Origin: Acetoanaerobium noterae
Lineage (GTDB): Bacteria; Bacillota; Clostridia; Peptostreptococcales; Filifactoraceae
Direction: 5' to 3'
DNA length: 64,000 nucleotides
Assembly: GCF_900168025.1 (NCBI RefSeq)
Contig: NZ_FUYN01000001.1
Coordinates: 310,001 to 374,000, forward strand
Made by a program: the position numbers and the translations under genes. Under the pieces are notes generated by a model. The model made no database searches, was not told the origin of the DNA, and saw nothing but the letters and a program-made list of their open reading frames with translations. Positions 2,276-63,868 of this stretch are shown here, piece after piece. Each line of letters opens with the position of its first letter. Within the stretch, counting starts at the first letter, position 1.

Positions 2276-2456
2276 GTTAATTCCCTCCCAAATTGTGTAC
2301 GCAAAAAATCACCTTCCCCACAGAAAAGGTGATTAGTCTTCGCTGTGCAGCGGATGCAATTTACAGTCGCGGTACTACCTTCGTTTAAAGGCGACTTCCC
2401 AGCCTTTAACACTTAACGCTGCAAATTTACTCTGCGTAAAGCTTTATGTATATATA
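2276..2456 (-). promoter_or_regulatory. Compact T-box-like leader of the pab operon
   Basis: On the minus strand the T-box sequence AAGGTAGTACCGCGA lies with its core at 2368-2379, and an intrinsic terminator (ATCACCTTTT, loop, GGGGAAGGTGAT, then six T) lies at 2303-2334. AAGG of the T-box can pair with CCTT of the terminator 5' arm, the usual antiterminator geometry. The transcribed leader is only about 180 bases, so Stem I is short. A strong hairpin, GTTAAAGGC with GCCTTTAAAC, has a loop starting TGG, which could be a Trp specifier. The bulge reads UAGU instead of UGGN. T-box class is well supported; amino acid is inference. Confidence 0.7.
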
Positions 2457-50217: not shown

Positions 50218-50467
50218 TTAAATAAACAAGAAAAGCTATGAAGAAAAATAGTACATTATAATTTCTGTTCAGAGAGCTGATGTTTGGTGCGAATCAGTGA
50301 GAAATTTTATGGAATCCATTTCTGAGCTGTTCTGAGGAAATCCAAGTAATCAGAACCGTAAGCCTGCGTTAAAGGTGTCAAAGTGAACAGCTATCAATGA
50401 TAGCGGTTAATTTGGGTGGCAACGCGGAGTTTAGACTTCGTCCCTTTTGTGGGACGGAGTCTTTTTT
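50218..50467 (+). promoter_or_regulatory. T-box riboswitch, serine type
   Basis: Full-length T-box: AGAGAG at 50271, Stem I with the GTTTGGTGCGAATCAG distal region, T-box GGGTGGCAACGCGG at 50414-50427, and terminator AGACTTCGTCCC / GGGACGGAGTCT plus T6 at 50434-50467. The specifier is probably TCT (50331-50333, followed by a purine), a serine codon. The bulge UGGC ends in C, complementary to discriminator G73 of tRNA-Ser. The downstream genes make serine, which agrees. Confidence 0.92.
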
Positions 50468-55748: not shown

Positions 55749-56804
55749 ATGAAAAGTATTTCGAATATTTTAGGATTTAATAAAGAAGCAATGCTTCTTG
55801 ATTCTAAACTCTATATTGTAAAGTCTATGGTTGCAATTGCCACTGGGTATATCATAGGCTCAAAAATGCCTATAGCAAATCTGGATATGATATCCGTTCT
55901 TTTAGGAGTTATGTACAATCTCGAGCCTGTTAATGTATCTGGAATAAAAGGGGGAATTAATCAGCTTTTAGCTTCTACTTTAGGAGCAGCTTGCACTGGA
56001 ATATTGATTTTGCTATTTGGTATCAATGTATACACTATAGCTCTAGGAATGGCACTTACATTATATGTATCTCTTAAAATAAACTGGAGAATGGTTTCTC
56101 CCGTAGCTATATTCACTTGTATTTATATGACTCAGTTTGTACAGCTAAATGCAGCTGCAGAGCCTAGCATCTGGCTCACCTTTAGATTGAGAATCGCAGC
56201 CCTTAGCTTAGGTGTAGCAATAGCAATATTTTATAATTATTTATTTTCATTTTTTTATTACAAAAAAATTGGTCACAAGCGATTGGAATTTGTTAAGCTT
56301 CAAACCTTAAAAGGCCTTACTCATATAAAAAATCAACTTTTATGCACAGATATTTCTAATGAAAATTCAAATATCTTGTATCAAAGCATTTTTAATGATG
56401 TGGAATTAGTGAATTCAAACATCAAAACTATGCTTAGTGAATCAGCACTTCCCTACAAAGCCGTCCAAAAAGATGAGCTTATTACTATTTCAACAATAAT
56501 TGATGACTTAAAAAAGATAAACCATTTATCCTACGATATTTATTTTGCCTATAAAGAGGATCCTTTCCTCGATATTCACAGTGAAAAAATATTAAGCTCT
56601 ATAGATAACGTAATAGTAAGTCTAAGCACCATTGATTTTAATAATTTGAATTTAGAAAACAAAAACTTCCAGAATAACCATATTGATTATTCTGGAAGCG
56701 AAAGTAATCGTTTAATTTGGAATCTTAAAACTATAGAAAAATCAGTAGAAAATATTTACTCATCTGCTAAAATATTATCCCTAAAAAACATTATTATGCC
56801 GTAA
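55749..56804 (+). CDS. Aromatic acid exporter family membrane protein
   Basis: 351 residues with about six helices in the N-terminal half (MVAIATGYIIGSKMP, GILILLFGINVYTIALGMAL, LGVAIAIFYNYLF) and a helical cytoplasmic half, the layout of ArAE/FUSC proteins (DUF939). Substrate unknown. ATG 55749 is preceded by GTGGAGG; an in-frame GTG is part of that site. The 3' end overlaps the convergent small gene by 49 bases. Confidence 0.78.
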   Translation: MKSISNILGFNKEAMLLDSKLYIVKSMVAIATGYIIGSKMPIANLDMISVLLGVMYNLEPVNVSGIKGGINQLLASTLGAACTGILILLFGINVYTIALGMALTLYVSLKINWRMVSPVAIFTCIYMTQFVQLNAAAEPSIWLTFRLRIAALSLGVAIAIFYNYLFSFFYYKKIGHKRLEFVKLQTLKGLTHIKNQLLCTDISNENSNILYQSIFNDVELVNSNIKTMLSESALPYKAVQKDELITISTIIDDLKKINHLSYDIYFAYKEDPFLDIHSEKILSSIDNVIVSLSTIDFNNLNLENKNFQNNHIDYSGSESNRLIWNLKTIEKSVENIYSSAKILSLKNIIMP

Positions 56805-57061
56805 GCAGCCATAACAGCCATGTATTGATCTGACAATGATGATTCTATCCCTTCTATATTGGCATTGTCCCTATATAGTTGTTCATTTCGTTCCACCTCG
56901 GAATCGAAGAACTCATCAAACTCCTCGATTGATTTCATGGCTGAAATTTTGTCTGCATACCTATCATATTCTTCTCCTAGATGCTGCAGAAAAAATTTAT
57001 CCAGTGCAGGATACCTTGACTTATAAAGTGATAATACTTGATCTTTTGTCTTAATTTTCAT
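56756..57061 (-). CDS. Hypothetical 101-residue helical protein
   Basis: No family recognised. Acidic and mostly helical by composition (SIEEFDEFFDSEVERNEQLY), ending in a hydrophobic helix (YMAVMAAYGIIMFFRDNIL). GGAGG eight bases before ATG makes it a believable gene. It follows the 86-residue gene by 16 bases and overlaps the convergent exporter-like gene at its end. Confidence 0.6.
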   Translation of the reverse strand: MKIKTKDQVLSLYKSRYPALDKFFLQHLGEEYDRYADKISAMKSIEEFDEFFDSEVERNEQLYRDNANIEGIESSLSDQYMAVMAAYGIIMFFRDNILADE

Positions 57062-57077
57062 ATGAATTCCTCCAGTC

Positions 57078-57338
57078 TTATTCTCCTAATTGTGATTCTA
57101 AATTTGCTATTTCTGCTTTTAGTATATCAATTTCATTTATATAAGCCTGAACCTGCTCGTCAACTGTTTTATTTTCTTTTAATGCTGTATAAACAAGCTC
57201 TCCAAGTAGTTTATACTTTTCGTCAACATTGGATTTAACCTTTGCAATATCCATTTTTGTTTTTGTAGTGTTTGCAACTTCCGATGTTTTTTCCCCAACC
57301 TTGTTAAGCGTCTGAGCCATTTTATCCATAAAACTCAT
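57078..57338 (-). CDS. Small coiled-coil protein
   Basis: 86 residues. An amphipathic start (MDKMAQTLNKVGEKTSEVAN), a central helix (KYKLLGELVYTALKENK), and a C-terminal coiled coil (INEIDILKAEIANLESQL). Similar segments occur ahead of zinc ribbons in Firmicute proteins, but no cysteines are present here. AGGGAGGG about seven bases before ATG. Operon with the next small gene. Function unknown. Confidence 0.7.
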   Translation of the reverse strand: MSFMDKMAQTLNKVGEKTSEVANTTKTKMDIAKVKSNVDEKYKLLGELVYTALKENKTVDEQVQAYINEIDILKAEIANLESQLGE

Positions 57339-57393
57339 AAAATTCCCTCCCTGTATTATTTTGTATAATAATACCCAAAAATTGGTTAAACTA

Positions 57394-58008
57394 TCAGGTT
57401 GTACTAATACTACAAAGTAAAATTTCTGCTACTTCTTCACAGTTAATTTCAATATCTAAGCTTGCATTTGGTTTATTTGCATTTACAAGTAACAAATCCA
57501 TTTTTGATAAAGTTATATCTCTATCCTCTAGCTTAATATTTAAATCATGAAATGGAGATATTAATATTTCAAACCTATTTTCAAATCCAGCTTCCAAGGT
57601 CTCCTTAAATAAAGTCATAGTATACACTTTGTCTATTTTTACTGATTTAAGATTCCCTGAAGCTTTTTCACTTAGCATAAGGTTAAAATCCTTGGCTTTT
57701 CCATAGCTTGTAGTAGGAATAGCTCCAGAGAAATTATAAACCTCAAAAGGCTGCAAATCTATAAAATCTTTATTATTATGTGTAAGCCTTAGAATATTAT
57801 CTAGTGGAGTTATATACCTATTAATCCCTTTAAGCTCTGTGAATTCTGATTTATCTAAATCCACAGTAGCTGAGCTAATTCTAAATGCAAAATCTCTCAC
57901 AGCGTAGCTAGAATGCTCGGGAAAAATCAACATTTGCGTAGTAGTTCCTCCTAACCAAGAGGATGTCTGATATTCTTCTTTATGAATTATTTTTAGGTTG
58001 TAGTTCAT
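57394..58008 (-). CDS. HutD/Ves family protein
   Basis: 204 residues of cupin-like fold: SSWLGGTTTQMLIFPEHS and FRISSATVDLDKSEFTELKG with INRYITPLDN fit the HutD pattern (W-x-G-G, RxSxAxV, F-x-G-x-xR). Relatives lie in histidine-use operons, yet no hut gene is here; Ves is a cold-linked homologue. It is coupled to the barstar gene by a one-base overlap (TAATG), so it belongs to the ribonuclease operon; why is unknown. Confidence 0.8.
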   Translation of the reverse strand: MNYNLKIIHKEEYQTSSWLGGTTTQMLIFPEHSSYAVRDFAFRISSATVDLDKSEFTELKGINRYITPLDNILRLTHNNKDFIDLQPFEVYNFSGAIPTTSYGKAKDFNLMLSEKASGNLKSVKIDKVYTMTLFKETLEAGFENRFEILISPFHDLNIKLEDRDITLSKMDLLLVNANKPNASLDIEINCEEVAEILLCSISTT

Positions 58009-58298
58009 TATAGCTTCTCCTCACGAGTGTTATGAATTTCAAATATAACATTCTTATTTTCTTTTGATGCATCTTCAAACACATCTATAAGAGCATGTCC
58101 ATAGTCTTCTAAATTAGCTATCAGGCTTTCCTTATTAATGAGCCTAATTTCAATCTTTGAACTATAGCTCATAAGAACATCCCAAAGAGCATCTAAATTA
58201 TTTCCATAGTATTCGTTGTTATCCAATTGATGCTTTATATAAAGATGTACATAGTCTTTATTTTTCATATCTTTTCCATCTAAAACTACTTTTATCAT
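58008..58298 (-). CDS. Barstar-type ribonuclease inhibitor
   Basis: About 96 residues. VVLDGKDMKNKDYVHLYIKH, then YYGNNLDALWDVLMS, is the barstar signature (loop plus NLDALWD); barnase-binding acidic residues are in the following helix region (ANLEDYGHALIDVFEDA). The ATG at 58298 follows AGAGGAG by seven bases and lies two bases after the stop of the barnase gene. It would protect the cytoplasm from the ribonuclease before export. Confidence 0.93.
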   Translation of the reverse strand: MIKVVLDGKDMKNKDYVHLYIKHQLDNNEYYGNNLDALWDVLMSYSSKIEIRLINKESLIANLEDYGHALIDVFEDASKENKNVIFEIHNTREEKL

Positions 58299-58300
58299 AA

Positions 58301-58852
58301 TCACTCCTCTTTGTAAAGCAATTCAAAGCTATCATAATGATCCTTTGTGTAATATATTAACCCATCATTTGAATATACTAATCTTTCTGGTCCTCTAAAT
58401 CCCCCTTTATAATTTATATCACATTCAAAGTACTCCCTGCCTGATTTTTTAGGTAGCTTACCTTCTCTATTTCCAAATCTATCTCCTCCAATGCTCATTT
58501 TATCTGTCACATCCCATAGATTCCCTTCACTGGCTTCCCATCCCATGCTAACTGCATCTTTTTTAGTTATATAATTTCTTGGAAGCTTATTGTAAGTATG
58601 AATAAATAGTGCAACCTCAGCTTTACTTGTGTAATAACCCTGTTCATCTATCTCGGCATTAGATGAATTTGAAGTTTCATATACTTCATTTGATTGATTT
58701 TCTAAATCATCTAAGCTTTCTTCACTTTCGTTTATTTGTGGGATATCTGAATCTTTATATTCTTCTGTTTGAAATGGGCTACAAGCTACAAAGGAAAAAA
58801 TGTATACAATCATCATAACTACGGATAATACTTTTTTTATATTAAAATTCAC
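58301..58852 (-). CDS. Barnase-family ribonuclease with lipoprotein signal
   Basis: Extracellular guanyl-specific RNase. Start is GTG 58852 with AGGAGG seven bases upstream; 183 residues. Signal peptide and lipobox SFVAC (Cys24), an acidic linker to about residue 70, then the barnase domain: HTYNKLPRNYITKKDA, GGDRFGNREGKLP and ECDINYKGGFRGPERLVYS. Catalytic Glu143, Arg153, Arg157 and His172 (KDHYDSF) match Glu73, Arg83, Arg87 and His102 of barnase. The lipobox suggests membrane anchoring, unlike secreted barnase. Confidence 0.93.
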   Translation of the reverse strand: MNFNIKKVLSVVMMIVYIFSFVACSPFQTEEYKDSDIPQINESEESLDDLENQSNEVYETSNSSNAEIDEQGYYTSKAEVALFIHTYNKLPRNYITKKDAVSMGWEASEGNLWDVTDKMSIGGDRFGNREGKLPKKSGREYFECDINYKGGFRGPERLVYSNDGLIYYTKDHYDSFELLYKEE

Positions 58853-59032
58853 ATCTAAACCTCCTAAAATTAACAATTTCTATAGCAATATTATATAATA
58901 CTTCTAGAAATAATTTGCAATTTTTCTATAATATTTCAAAATCAAGGAAAATGTTTTCATAAATATGATAAAAACCGTTATAATGTATTTAGTGTGTTAA
59001 ACTTTTAGATTTATACCACAGGAGGAGACAAT

Positions 59033-59950
59033 ATGCAAAAGATACTTCAAGAGGCTATTGACAATAACAGACATTGGACTGCCCATGGCGCTGTCGCTTC
59101 ATACATACCTGAGCTTGCTAAAGAAAATCCGGATGCTTTAGGTGTCTGTATTTACAATATTGACAATACAACGCTTTGTGCTGGAGATTCACATACTAAA
59201 TTCACTATCCAAAGTGTTTCTAAAGTAGTGACCTTAATTTGTGCTCTCATAGATAAAGGAAAAGAAACTGTTTTTTCTAGTGTTGGAATGGAGCCATCAG
59301 CAGATCCGTTTAACTCTATGGTAAAATTAGAAACTAGAGAATCTCATAAACCACTTAATCCTTTTATAAATGCTGGTGCTATTGTATGTACCTCGATGGT
59401 TCAGGGGGATAACGGCATTGAGAAATTTAATAGAATCCACAACATGATTAAAATTATGGCAGACAACCCAGCTATAGATATAAATCAATCCGTATATCGG
59501 TCAGAAAAGCTAACAGGAAATACCAATAGAGCCATAGCCTATTACTTAAAAGGTGCTGGTCTGATTGAAAAGGATGTTGAGGATGTCCTAGATACATATT
59601 TTAAGCTTTGTTCTATTGAAGTAACTGCCCTAGACGTTGCAAAAATGGCTAGCGTGGTAGCAAATAACGGCATCACTCCATGGTCAAACGAAAGATTGAT
59701 GAGCATAGAAATATGCAGAATAGTAAAAGCCATAATGACTACCTGCGGACTTTACGATTCCTCGGGACAATTTTCTGTTGAGGTTGGACTTCCTTCAAAA
59801 AGTGGTGTAGGTGGATGCATAATGGCAGTGGCTCCTCAAAACATGGGCATAGCTGTTATAGGTCCAGCCCTAGATTCTCACGGAAACAGCATGGCAGGAA
59901 AAAAAGTTTTAGAATATCTTTCCAATGAACTAAATCTAAGTATTTTTTAA
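59033..59950 (+). CDS. glsA: Glutaminase A
   Basis: Hydrolyses glutamine to glutamate and ammonia. Beta-lactamase-like fold with the Ser-x-x-Lys pair Ser61/Lys64 in TIQSVSKVVTL; NPFINAGAIV and GNTNRAIAYYLKG (Tyr pair) and SKSGVGGGI-like PSKSGVGGCIMAVAP are conserved. 305 residues. GGAGGAG before ATG. Monocistronic, sharing a terminator with the convergent pseudouridine synthase gene. Confidence 0.96.
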   Translation: MQKILQEAIDNNRHWTAHGAVASYIPELAKENPDALGVCIYNIDNTTLCAGDSHTKFTIQSVSKVVTLICALIDKGKETVFSSVGMEPSADPFNSMVKLETRESHKPLNPFINAGAIVCTSMVQGDNGIEKFNRIHNMIKIMADNPAIDINQSVYRSEKLTGNTNRAIAYYLKGAGLIEKDVEDVLDTYFKLCSIEVTALDVAKMASVVANNGITPWSNERLMSIEICRIVKAIMTTCGLYDSSGQFSVEVGLPSKSGVGGCIMAVAPQNMGIAVIGPALDSHGNSMAGKKVLEYLSNELNLSIF

Positions 59951-63640: not shown

Positions 63641-63689
63641 GACATAAATACTTCAATCCTCCCTCCGAAGATAGTAATAATAATAAGAT

Positions 63690-63836
63690 AAGGCAGGTTT
63701 CCTGGCTCATGGTTCATCCTAATCTTCGGCCTTCTCAGTTTCCCAATGGCTTAATCGAATTTCGTTCCCATATACAGTAGCGGGGGCTGCAGTGGAATTT
63801 AACCACTTTCCCTTTTAACCCATCAAGGGCACCATA
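63690..63836 (-). promoter_or_regulatory. Adenosylcobalamin riboswitch
   Basis: Minus strand shows GGTGCC and GATGGGTTAAAAGGGAA at the 5' side, TTCCACTGCAGCCCCCGCTA and ACTGT in the core, AAGCCA with GAGAAGGCCG, and the B12 box GCCAGGAAACCTGCC at 63692-63706. All are hallmarks of the cobalamin aptamer. It precedes btuFCD, explaining the substrate. Right of 63897 to the window end I see only AT-rich sequence. Confidence 0.97.
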
Positions 63837-63868
63837 TCTTTTATAATTTTTTTAAACTTATAATTTTT

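What the first reader, a model, noticed from the sequence alone, without database searches (positions are those of the whole stretch)
57394..58852. Barnase, barstar and HutD in one operon, with the ribonuclease made as a lipoprotein
Seen: a complete barnase domain (Glu143, Arg153, Arg157, His172) behind a lipobox and an acidic linker; barstar starts two bases after its stop; HutD overlaps barstar by one base. Known: in Bacillus amyloliquefaciens barnase and barstar genes are not adjacent and barnase is freely secreted. Inference: a surface-tethered RNase with built-in immunity, used for nutrition or against neighbours, with a HutD/Ves protein of unknown role in the unit.
Basis: partly seen in the sequence, partly recalled or inferred. 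Interest (0 to 1): 0.75.

Follow-up and report, generated by a model that had tools for sequence, protein, structure and literature searches.

The report
Membrane-tethered barnase with barstar, HutD passenger
A clostridial bacterium (Acetoanaerobium) carries a barnase-like RNA-cutting enzyme that appears to be anchored to its cell surface by a lipid and is made together with its inhibitor barstar; anchored barnase with barstar is common in related clostridia, while the third gene, HutD, looks like a local neighbour only.

Summary
On the minus strand, a complete barnase domain (58301-58852) follows a lipobox (Cys24) and an acidic linker; barstar (ATG at 58298) starts two bases after its stop; HutD overlaps barstar by one base. 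The genome is Acetoanaerobium: A. noterae DSL2 has the same 12.7 kb at 98.2% identity.
Two of the three parts generalise. Of 118 clostridial barnase loci examined, 108 have barstar within 400 bases behind. 91 are export-type proteins by pattern and hydropathy: 49 with a lipobox, 42 with another N-terminal hydrophobic segment. The two types are intermixed on the tree, so tethering itself seems to be what is kept (inference).
HutD does not generalise. It is adjacent in 1 of 59 barnase genomes of the order, although 25 of them have a HutD; 0 of 55 further barnase genomes in the class have one. In one family member HutD sits with hut genes.
Best reading: a surface-tethered RNase degrading RNA at the envelope, with cytoplasmic barstar guarding the cell before export; HutD is a lineage-specific, translationally coupled passenger. 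Use against neighbours is not excluded but lacks delivery-module evidence. Nothing was tested in the laboratory.

The parts
58301..58852 (-). barnase-family ribonuclease precursor, 183 aa, predicted lipoprotein (Cys24), acidic linker about residues 25-79, RNase domain about residues 80-178
   Evidence: PF00545 6.4e-20; phmmer to barnase 4.7e-35; model matches barnase; lipobox pattern
58008..58298 (-). barstar-family inhibitor, 96 aa from ATG 58298 (the longer GTG ORF opens at 58304)
   Evidence: PF01337 3.7e-16; phmmer to barstar 1.4e-7, EYYGNNLDALWD segment aligned; GAGGAG inside the barnase 3' end
57394..58008 (-). HutD/Ves-family protein, 204 aa, start overlapping the barstar stop (TAATG)
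   Evidence: PF05962 6.1e-24; model mean pLDDT 95, best matches 1yll (PA5104) and HutD of P. fluorescens 5fcc/5v00
58853..59032 (.). intergenic region between the divergent glutaminase gene (59033-59950, +) and the operon; only a weak minus-strand promoter-like site at 58939-58910 (9 of 12 matches)
57078..57338 (-). 86-aa ORF 55 bases behind HutD, no credible family match; may or may not share the transcript
56756..57061 (-). 101-aa ORF without family match, 16 bases behind the 86-aa ORF
56665..56699 (-). only terminator-like site found in 56600-59200 (16 pairs, then a T-rich tail), behind the 101-aa ORF
   Evidence: 1 found; shuffles mean 0.7

Best explanation
The gene makes an RNase precursor that is exported by Sec, lipidated at Cys24 and trimmed by signal peptidase II, so that the barnase domain hangs outside the membrane on a flexible acidic linker and cuts RNA at the cell surface. 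Barstar, translated from the same mRNA by coupling and without a signal-like N-terminus, stays in the cytoplasm and blocks any RNase that folds before export. The pair is a self-contained cassette found in many clostridia with changing neighbours; here it stands between glutaminase and hutD, and hutD has become coupled to it without a conserved functional link. Shown by sequence: domains, catalytic residues, lipobox, coupling arrangement, recurrence of pair and anchor, non-recurrence of HutD. Inferred: one transcript, lipidation, outward topology, RNase activity, cytoplasmic protection, and the nutritional or housekeeping use of RNA cleavage at the surface.
For: Catalytic residues intact and fold predicted. 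Barstar within 400 bases downstream on the same strand in 56 of 59 order loci and 52 of 59 class loci; 2 of the 10 misses end with the contig. Lipobox in 49 and another N-terminal hydrophobic segment in 42 of 118 loci, against 2.5% lipobox matches in shuffled N-termini. On a barnase-domain tree the lipobox label, against all other rows, needs 26 changes (shuffled mean 38), and starred branches force at least 5, so the two export types replace each other. Linker net acidic in 47 of 49 lipobox forms, median 51 residues. Two signal peptidase II matches in the genome. No third gene family recurs beside the pair: apart from the barnase and barstar clusters, the largest neighbour cluster spans 9 of 59 loci (ABC ATPase-like, at scattered positions) and the next 5. 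HutD adjacent in 1 of 59, and 0 of 55 class barnase genomes carry HutD. HutD lies among hut genes in the family member G004; the own genome has hutH-hutU elsewhere without HutD.
Against: No experiment. Topology and lipidation rest on a recalled pattern and hydropathy; no trained signal-peptide predictor was available. Of the 42 export forms without lipobox, 9 show a strict AxA in the region tested and 33 do not, but the test is crude: G004 (same family) is among the 33 and still looks freely secreted, so tethering is not universal. Eight export-type loci had no adjacent barstar where sequence was available. The Arg129 place (barnase Arg59) is Arg in only 36 of the 91 export forms. No nucleotide- or phosphate-scavenging gene was noticed beside it. 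HutD lies within about 5 kb of barnase in two more genomes (G260, G281, one genus), more than my rough hand estimate of about 0.1 among the 25 genomes that have both.
Confidence: 0.6

Rival explanations
1. A contact weapon: the surface-bound RNase enters or is shed into competing cells and cuts their RNA, and barstar is immunity against siblings as well as self.
For: Toxin-then-immunity gene order, which PMC3482391 reads as an 'incipient TI gene order' for simple barnase-barstar pairs. Barnase domains with delivery-type modules occur in the same class: MuF-type N-terminus in 20 of 118 loci by motif (2 of 2 tested match Pfam Phage_Mu_F), an Rhs-like N-terminus in G090 (by eye).
Against: The window protein has no Pfam domain besides the RNase. 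Of the 91 export forms, judged by eye only, three (G289, G417, G566) have an additional large region. More than one barstar behind the gene was seen in 4 of 20 MuF-type loci and 0 of 91 export-type loci (Fisher p 0.0008, rows not phylogenetically independent).
Confidence: 0.2
2. The RNase is released: signal peptidase I or later proteolysis in the linker frees it, as in Bacillus barnase and binase.
For: Low-complexity linkers are protease-prone (general knowledge); some relatives have AxA motifs (9 of 42) and G004 looks secreted.
Against: Lipobox in the window protein and in 49 of 118 loci.
Confidence: 0.13
3. Barnase, barstar and HutD form a functional three-gene unit, HutD tuning or sensing the products (for example in glutamate/histidine breakdown next to glutaminase).
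For: TAATG coupling; triplet kept in A. noterae DSL2; HutD within about 5 kb in G260 and G281.
Against: 1 of 59 adjacency in the order; 0 of 55 class barnase genomes with HutD. A. noterae DSL2 is too close (98.2%) to show constraint. In G260 and G281 HutD belongs to a YgiQ-methyltransferase-HutD block, with the barnase pair on different sides of HutD.
Confidence: 0.07

Closest known systems
Barnase/barstar of Bacillus amyloliquefaciens; binase of B. pumilus
   Same: RNase fold, catalytic residues, barstar as partner
   Different: Those are freely secreted (recalled) and barnase/binase are not in an operon with the inhibitor (PMC5021464 passages); here a lipobox and linker, adjacent barstar, and Cys instead of Ala after the catalytic Glu
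Balifase of B. licheniformis (PMC5021464; abstract and passages seen)
   Same: RNase and barstar orthologue in one operon
   Different: Secreted RNase, synthesis induced by phosphate starvation; the word lipoprotein does not occur in that paper's main text
Barnase-type polymorphic toxins with Imm-Barstar (PMC3482391; passages seen) and the MuF-barnase loci found here
   Same: Barnase domain followed by barstar
   Different: N-terminal delivery-type module instead of a membrane anchor; four loci here have two or three barstars
HutD of Pseudomonas (5fcc, 5v00, 1yll)
   Same: Fold of the third protein
   Different: Not in a hut operon here; 17-18% identity

Membership tests
Barnase/binase (N1/T1 microbial RNase) family | PF00545 domain above the curated cut-off | tested here: met
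   71.9 bits, cut-off 24
Barnase/binase (N1/T1 microbial RNase) family | Catalytic Glu, Arg, His and supporting Lys/Arg in place | tested here: met
   K97, R129, E143, R153, R157, H172
Barnase/binase (N1/T1 microbial RNase) family | Guanyl-preferring RNase activity | not testable with these tools
   needs an enzyme assay
Barstar family | PF01337 above cut-off; barnase-contacting helix (Tyr, Asp, Trp-Asp) kept | tested here: met
   59.3 bits, cut-off 23.4; EYYGNNLDALWD aligned to barstar; contact role recalled
Bacterial lipoprotein | Basic n-region, h-region and lipobox with Cys at position 15-35 (pattern recalled) | tested here: met
   Cys24
Bacterial lipoprotein | Lipidation and signal peptidase II processing | not testable with these tools
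   two PF01252 matches in the genome; processing itself needs an experiment
HutD/Ves family | PF05962 and HutD fold | tested here: met
Polymorphic toxin system | N-terminal trafficking/delivery module; variable toxin tips or immunity arrays | tested here: not met
   no Pfam domain besides the RNase; one barstar match in the genome
Conserved barnase-barstar-HutD operon | Triplet recurs in relatives | tested here: not met
   adjacent in 1 of 59 order barnase genomes, 0 of 55 class barnase genomes have HutD; A. noterae DSL2 shares it at 98.2% identity

The most novel reading that the evidence does not exclude
Clostridia have a large, so far undescribed clade of membrane-tethered barnases in which lipid anchors and other N-terminal membrane anchors have replaced each other repeatedly and a cysteine next to the catalytic glutamate is nearly fixed (90 of 90 aligned export-type loci; Ala or Val in 20 of 20 MuF-type loci; two exceptions outside the sample), so that cutting RNA at the cell surface is a conserved envelope function with dedicated cytoplasmic immunity.
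Probability: 0.45. Interest if true: 0.5.

Novelty: new variant of a known kind. Interest (0 to 1): 0.36.

Why it matters
Barnase-barstar is a textbook pair known from free secretion. If most clostridial barnases are held on the membrane, their natural job is local RNA cleavage at the envelope (scavenging, surface defence or contact killing), and the question why a cell takes the risk of such an RNase becomes testable in a simple two-gene system. The HutD part matters mainly as a warning: tight gene coupling in one genus is not by itself a functional unit.

Tried and rejected
HutD as a conserved third member: rejected by two surveys. An ancestral glutaminase-HutD pair: tblastn with the window's glutaminase found nothing in 35 HutD loci, 30 of which hold only about 1.5 kb on each side. 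PADLOC gave no credible match; two weak hits on the 86-aa ORF (E 0.0017 and 0.005) I take as chance. Phage collection: no match to the barnase protein. Plasmid collection: 4 records; the Acetoanaerobium (2.6 Mb) and the two Proteus (4.1 Mb) records are of chromosome size, the fourth is an Aerococcus tenax replicon of 592 kb. A Pho-type promoter was only looked for by eye; nothing clear. The cysteine next to the catalytic Glu: I first took it as universal, but L013 (a lipobox form) and L016 (Aerococcus) have Ala.

Limits. The first look of the genome search may miss weak copies. Start codons were chosen by a simple score; anchor types by hydropathy and a recalled pattern; MuF type by a motif of mine (2 of 20 checked with Pfam). 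The AxA test misses sites such as the one of G004 and also fires inside some hydrophobic segments, so its 9 of 42 is only a rough figure; G002, G022 and G281 of the 42 have near-lipobox cysteines. Fragmentary rows (G164, G377, G662, and G753 cut by the contig end) were kept in the 118. The class sample (391 genomes) shares G000 and G021 with the order sample; its 59 loci leave those two out. The eight export-type loci without adjacent barstar were judged from the barstar search and from ATG-started ORFs of 55 or more residues in the next 900 bases. The statement on the literature rests in an open-access library; of the listed papers I saw passages only of PMC5021464 and PMC3482391. HutD papers were seen as listings only; one search returned none.

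Full report
WHAT IS THERE. The finding lies on the minus strand. The RNase ORF runs from a GTG at 58852, behind AGGAGG, to a TGA at 58303-58301. Its 183-aa product has a basic N-terminus, a hydrophobic helix (residues 5-19 in the model), the lipobox ending at Cys24, an acidic stretch of low model confidence and a barnase domain with block means of pLDDT 96-98 from residue 71 to 180. The domain aligns without gaps to solved barnase over 98 residues, and the model superposes on barnase at about 0.7 A with 54-56% identity in the best rows. Lys97, Arg129, Glu143, Arg153, Arg157 and His172 stand at the places of the known active-site residues (letters checked; roles recalled). Barstar (PF01337) begins at ATG 58298: its GAGGAG ribosome site is made by the last two codons of the RNase gene. 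HutD (PF05962) begins at the last base of the barstar stop codon. At E 0.001 the genome gives one match each for HutD, barnase and barstar.

WHOSE IT IS. tblastn found a 97.3% identical protein in Acetoanaerobium noterae DSL2 (a 2.6 Mb record filed among plasmids). The window's last 12.7 kb is collinear with it at 98.2% identity, with the same gene order and the same three products in frame. Between the two, the RNase gene has 4 nonsynonymous and 2 synonymous codon differences of 184, barstar 1 and 2 of 97, HutD 4 and 4 of 205: too few to measure selection. The genus belongs to the Filifactoraceae. The one other genome of the genus that the searches returned (G001) has HutD but neither barnase nor barstar.

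HOW FAR IT GENERALISES. In the order, 59 of 393 genomes have a barnase; in the class sample 57 of 391 genomes, two of them already in the order set, which leaves 59 further loci in 55 genomes. Barstar follows on the same strand within 400 bases in 56 of 59 and 52 of 59 loci (median 30 and 31 bases between domain matches). Two of the ten misses end with the contig (G139, G516); in the other eight, all export-type, no adjacent barstar was seen. The neighbours change: apart from the barnase and barstar clusters, the largest cluster of neighbouring ORFs in the order set spans 9 of 59 loci (ABC ATPases at scattered positions), the next 5. The 118 loci split into 49 with a lipobox, 42 with another N-terminal hydrophobic segment, 20 of MuF type and 7 others (two MuF-type proteins were given to Pfam and both match Phage_Mu_F). 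Shuffled N-termini match the lipobox pattern in 2.5% of cases. Of the 42, 33 show no strict AxA motif in the region tested, so an uncleaved anchor is likely for many; but G004, one of the 33, looks secreted, and G002, G022 and G281 have near-lipobox cysteines. On the tree of the 118 domains (quick method, 109 columns, 57 of 115 inner branches under 80% support) the lipobox label against all other rows needs 26 changes, 38 in shuffles, and at least 5 are forced by starred branches. The window's nearest rows are G148 (lipobox, 72% identity) and G157 (lipobox). I read this as tethering kept by exchangeable anchors, which is an inference.

HUTD. Of the 59 order genomes with barnase, 25 have a HutD (counted by hand). 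Only in the window's genome are they adjacent. In G260 HutD lies about 1.7 kb behind the pair, with a DNA-methyltransferase-like gene between; in G281 it lies over 4 kb before it. Both are of one genus and share a YgiQ-methyltransferase-HutD block (names by my reading of the sequences), with the barnase pair on different sides of HutD. By a rough hand estimate about 0.1 such proximities would be expected among 25 genomes, so some regional tendency is not excluded. None of the 55 other barnase genomes of the class has HutD. In family member G004 HutD stands among urocanase-, imidazolonepropionase- and histidine-ammonia-lyase-like genes (names by my reading of the sequences). The window's genome has urocanase on another contig (Pfam) with a hutH-like gene beside it, and no second HutD. 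The simplest account is that the barnase-barstar cassette and hutD came together in Acetoanaerobium.

A CYSTEINE BY THE CATALYTIC GLUTAMATE. At the place of barnase Ala74, in the alignment, 48 lipobox forms and 42 other export forms carry Cys and none another residue (one lipobox row, a fragment, has a gap there); MuF-type forms carry Ala (18) or Val (2). A cruder motif search in the same call found Glu-Cys in 87 of the 91 export rows. Outside this sample L013 and L016 have Ala. In the window protein it is the only cysteine besides the one of the lipobox. From recall of the barnase structure this side chain faces the core, so core packing is as likely as a redox role. By contrast the place of barnase Arg59 is not kept: Arg in 19 of 49 lipobox and 17 of 42 other export forms.

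HOW IT LIKELY WORKS. Export and lipid anchoring of the RNase outside the membrane; cytoplasmic barstar, made from the same message, as protection before export. The use outside is the open step. Nutrition or envelope clean-up needs no further part; an attack on neighbours would need delivery, and the delivery-type barnases of the same class are built differently, with MuF N-termini and, in 4 of 20 loci, two or three barstars in a row, against 0 of 91 in the export type.

WHAT IS KNOWN. Balifase and its barstar share an operon in B. licheniformis (PMC5021464, abstract and passages). PMC3482391 (passages) speaks of widely distributed simple barnase-barstar pairs and of Imm-Barstar as specifically associated with barnase-like toxins. 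I noticed no paper on a lipoprotein barnase in the listings; the library is open access only, and of those listed papers I looked inside PMC3482391 alone. Hence a variant of a known kind, of moderate interest.

Noticed in passing
window 58421-58423 (codon 144 of the RNase, minus strand) and the 118-row alignment: Cys instead of Ala next to the catalytic Glu in 90 of 90 aligned export-type clostridial barnases, Ala/Val in 20 of 20 MuF-type ones; exceptions outside the sample: L013 and L016.
   Followed up: partly
L175, L188, L192, L193: MuF-type barnase genes followed by two or three barstar genes in a row, an immunity-array pattern not seen behind the export-type forms.
   Followed up: partly
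L146, L147 (G417, G566): Barnase domain behind an N-terminal hydrophobic segment and an alpha/beta-hydrolase-like region in one open frame of 370-386 codons (by eye).
   Followed up: no
L118 (G289): 661-codon open frame with an N-terminal hydrophobic segment, a long middle region and a C-terminal barnase domain.
   Followed up: no
G296:C134:770-1018, G262:C138:3460-3708: Barstar domain inside open frames of about 300 codons, on another contig than the barnase gene of the same genome.
   Followed up: no
L043, L048, L050 and others: Many HutD hits of family f10 lie in open frames of about 360-440 codons, about twice the usual HutD length; in G260 and G281 hydrophobic segments follow the HutD part (by eye).
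   Followed up: no
L199 3001-3806: Aerococcus tenax 592-kb replicon: annotated ribonuclease domain protein followed by an annotated barstar family protein, so the pair also occurs outside Clostridia.
   Followed up: no
window 63675-63851 (-): Cobalamin riboswitch (Rfam) ahead of binding-protein and ABC transporter genes.
   Followed up: no
window 50229-50448 (+): T-box leader (Rfam) in the region before a phosphoglycerate-dehydrogenase-like gene.
   Followed up: no
window 2346-2436 (-): Tetrahydrofolate riboswitch (Rfam).
   Followed up: no
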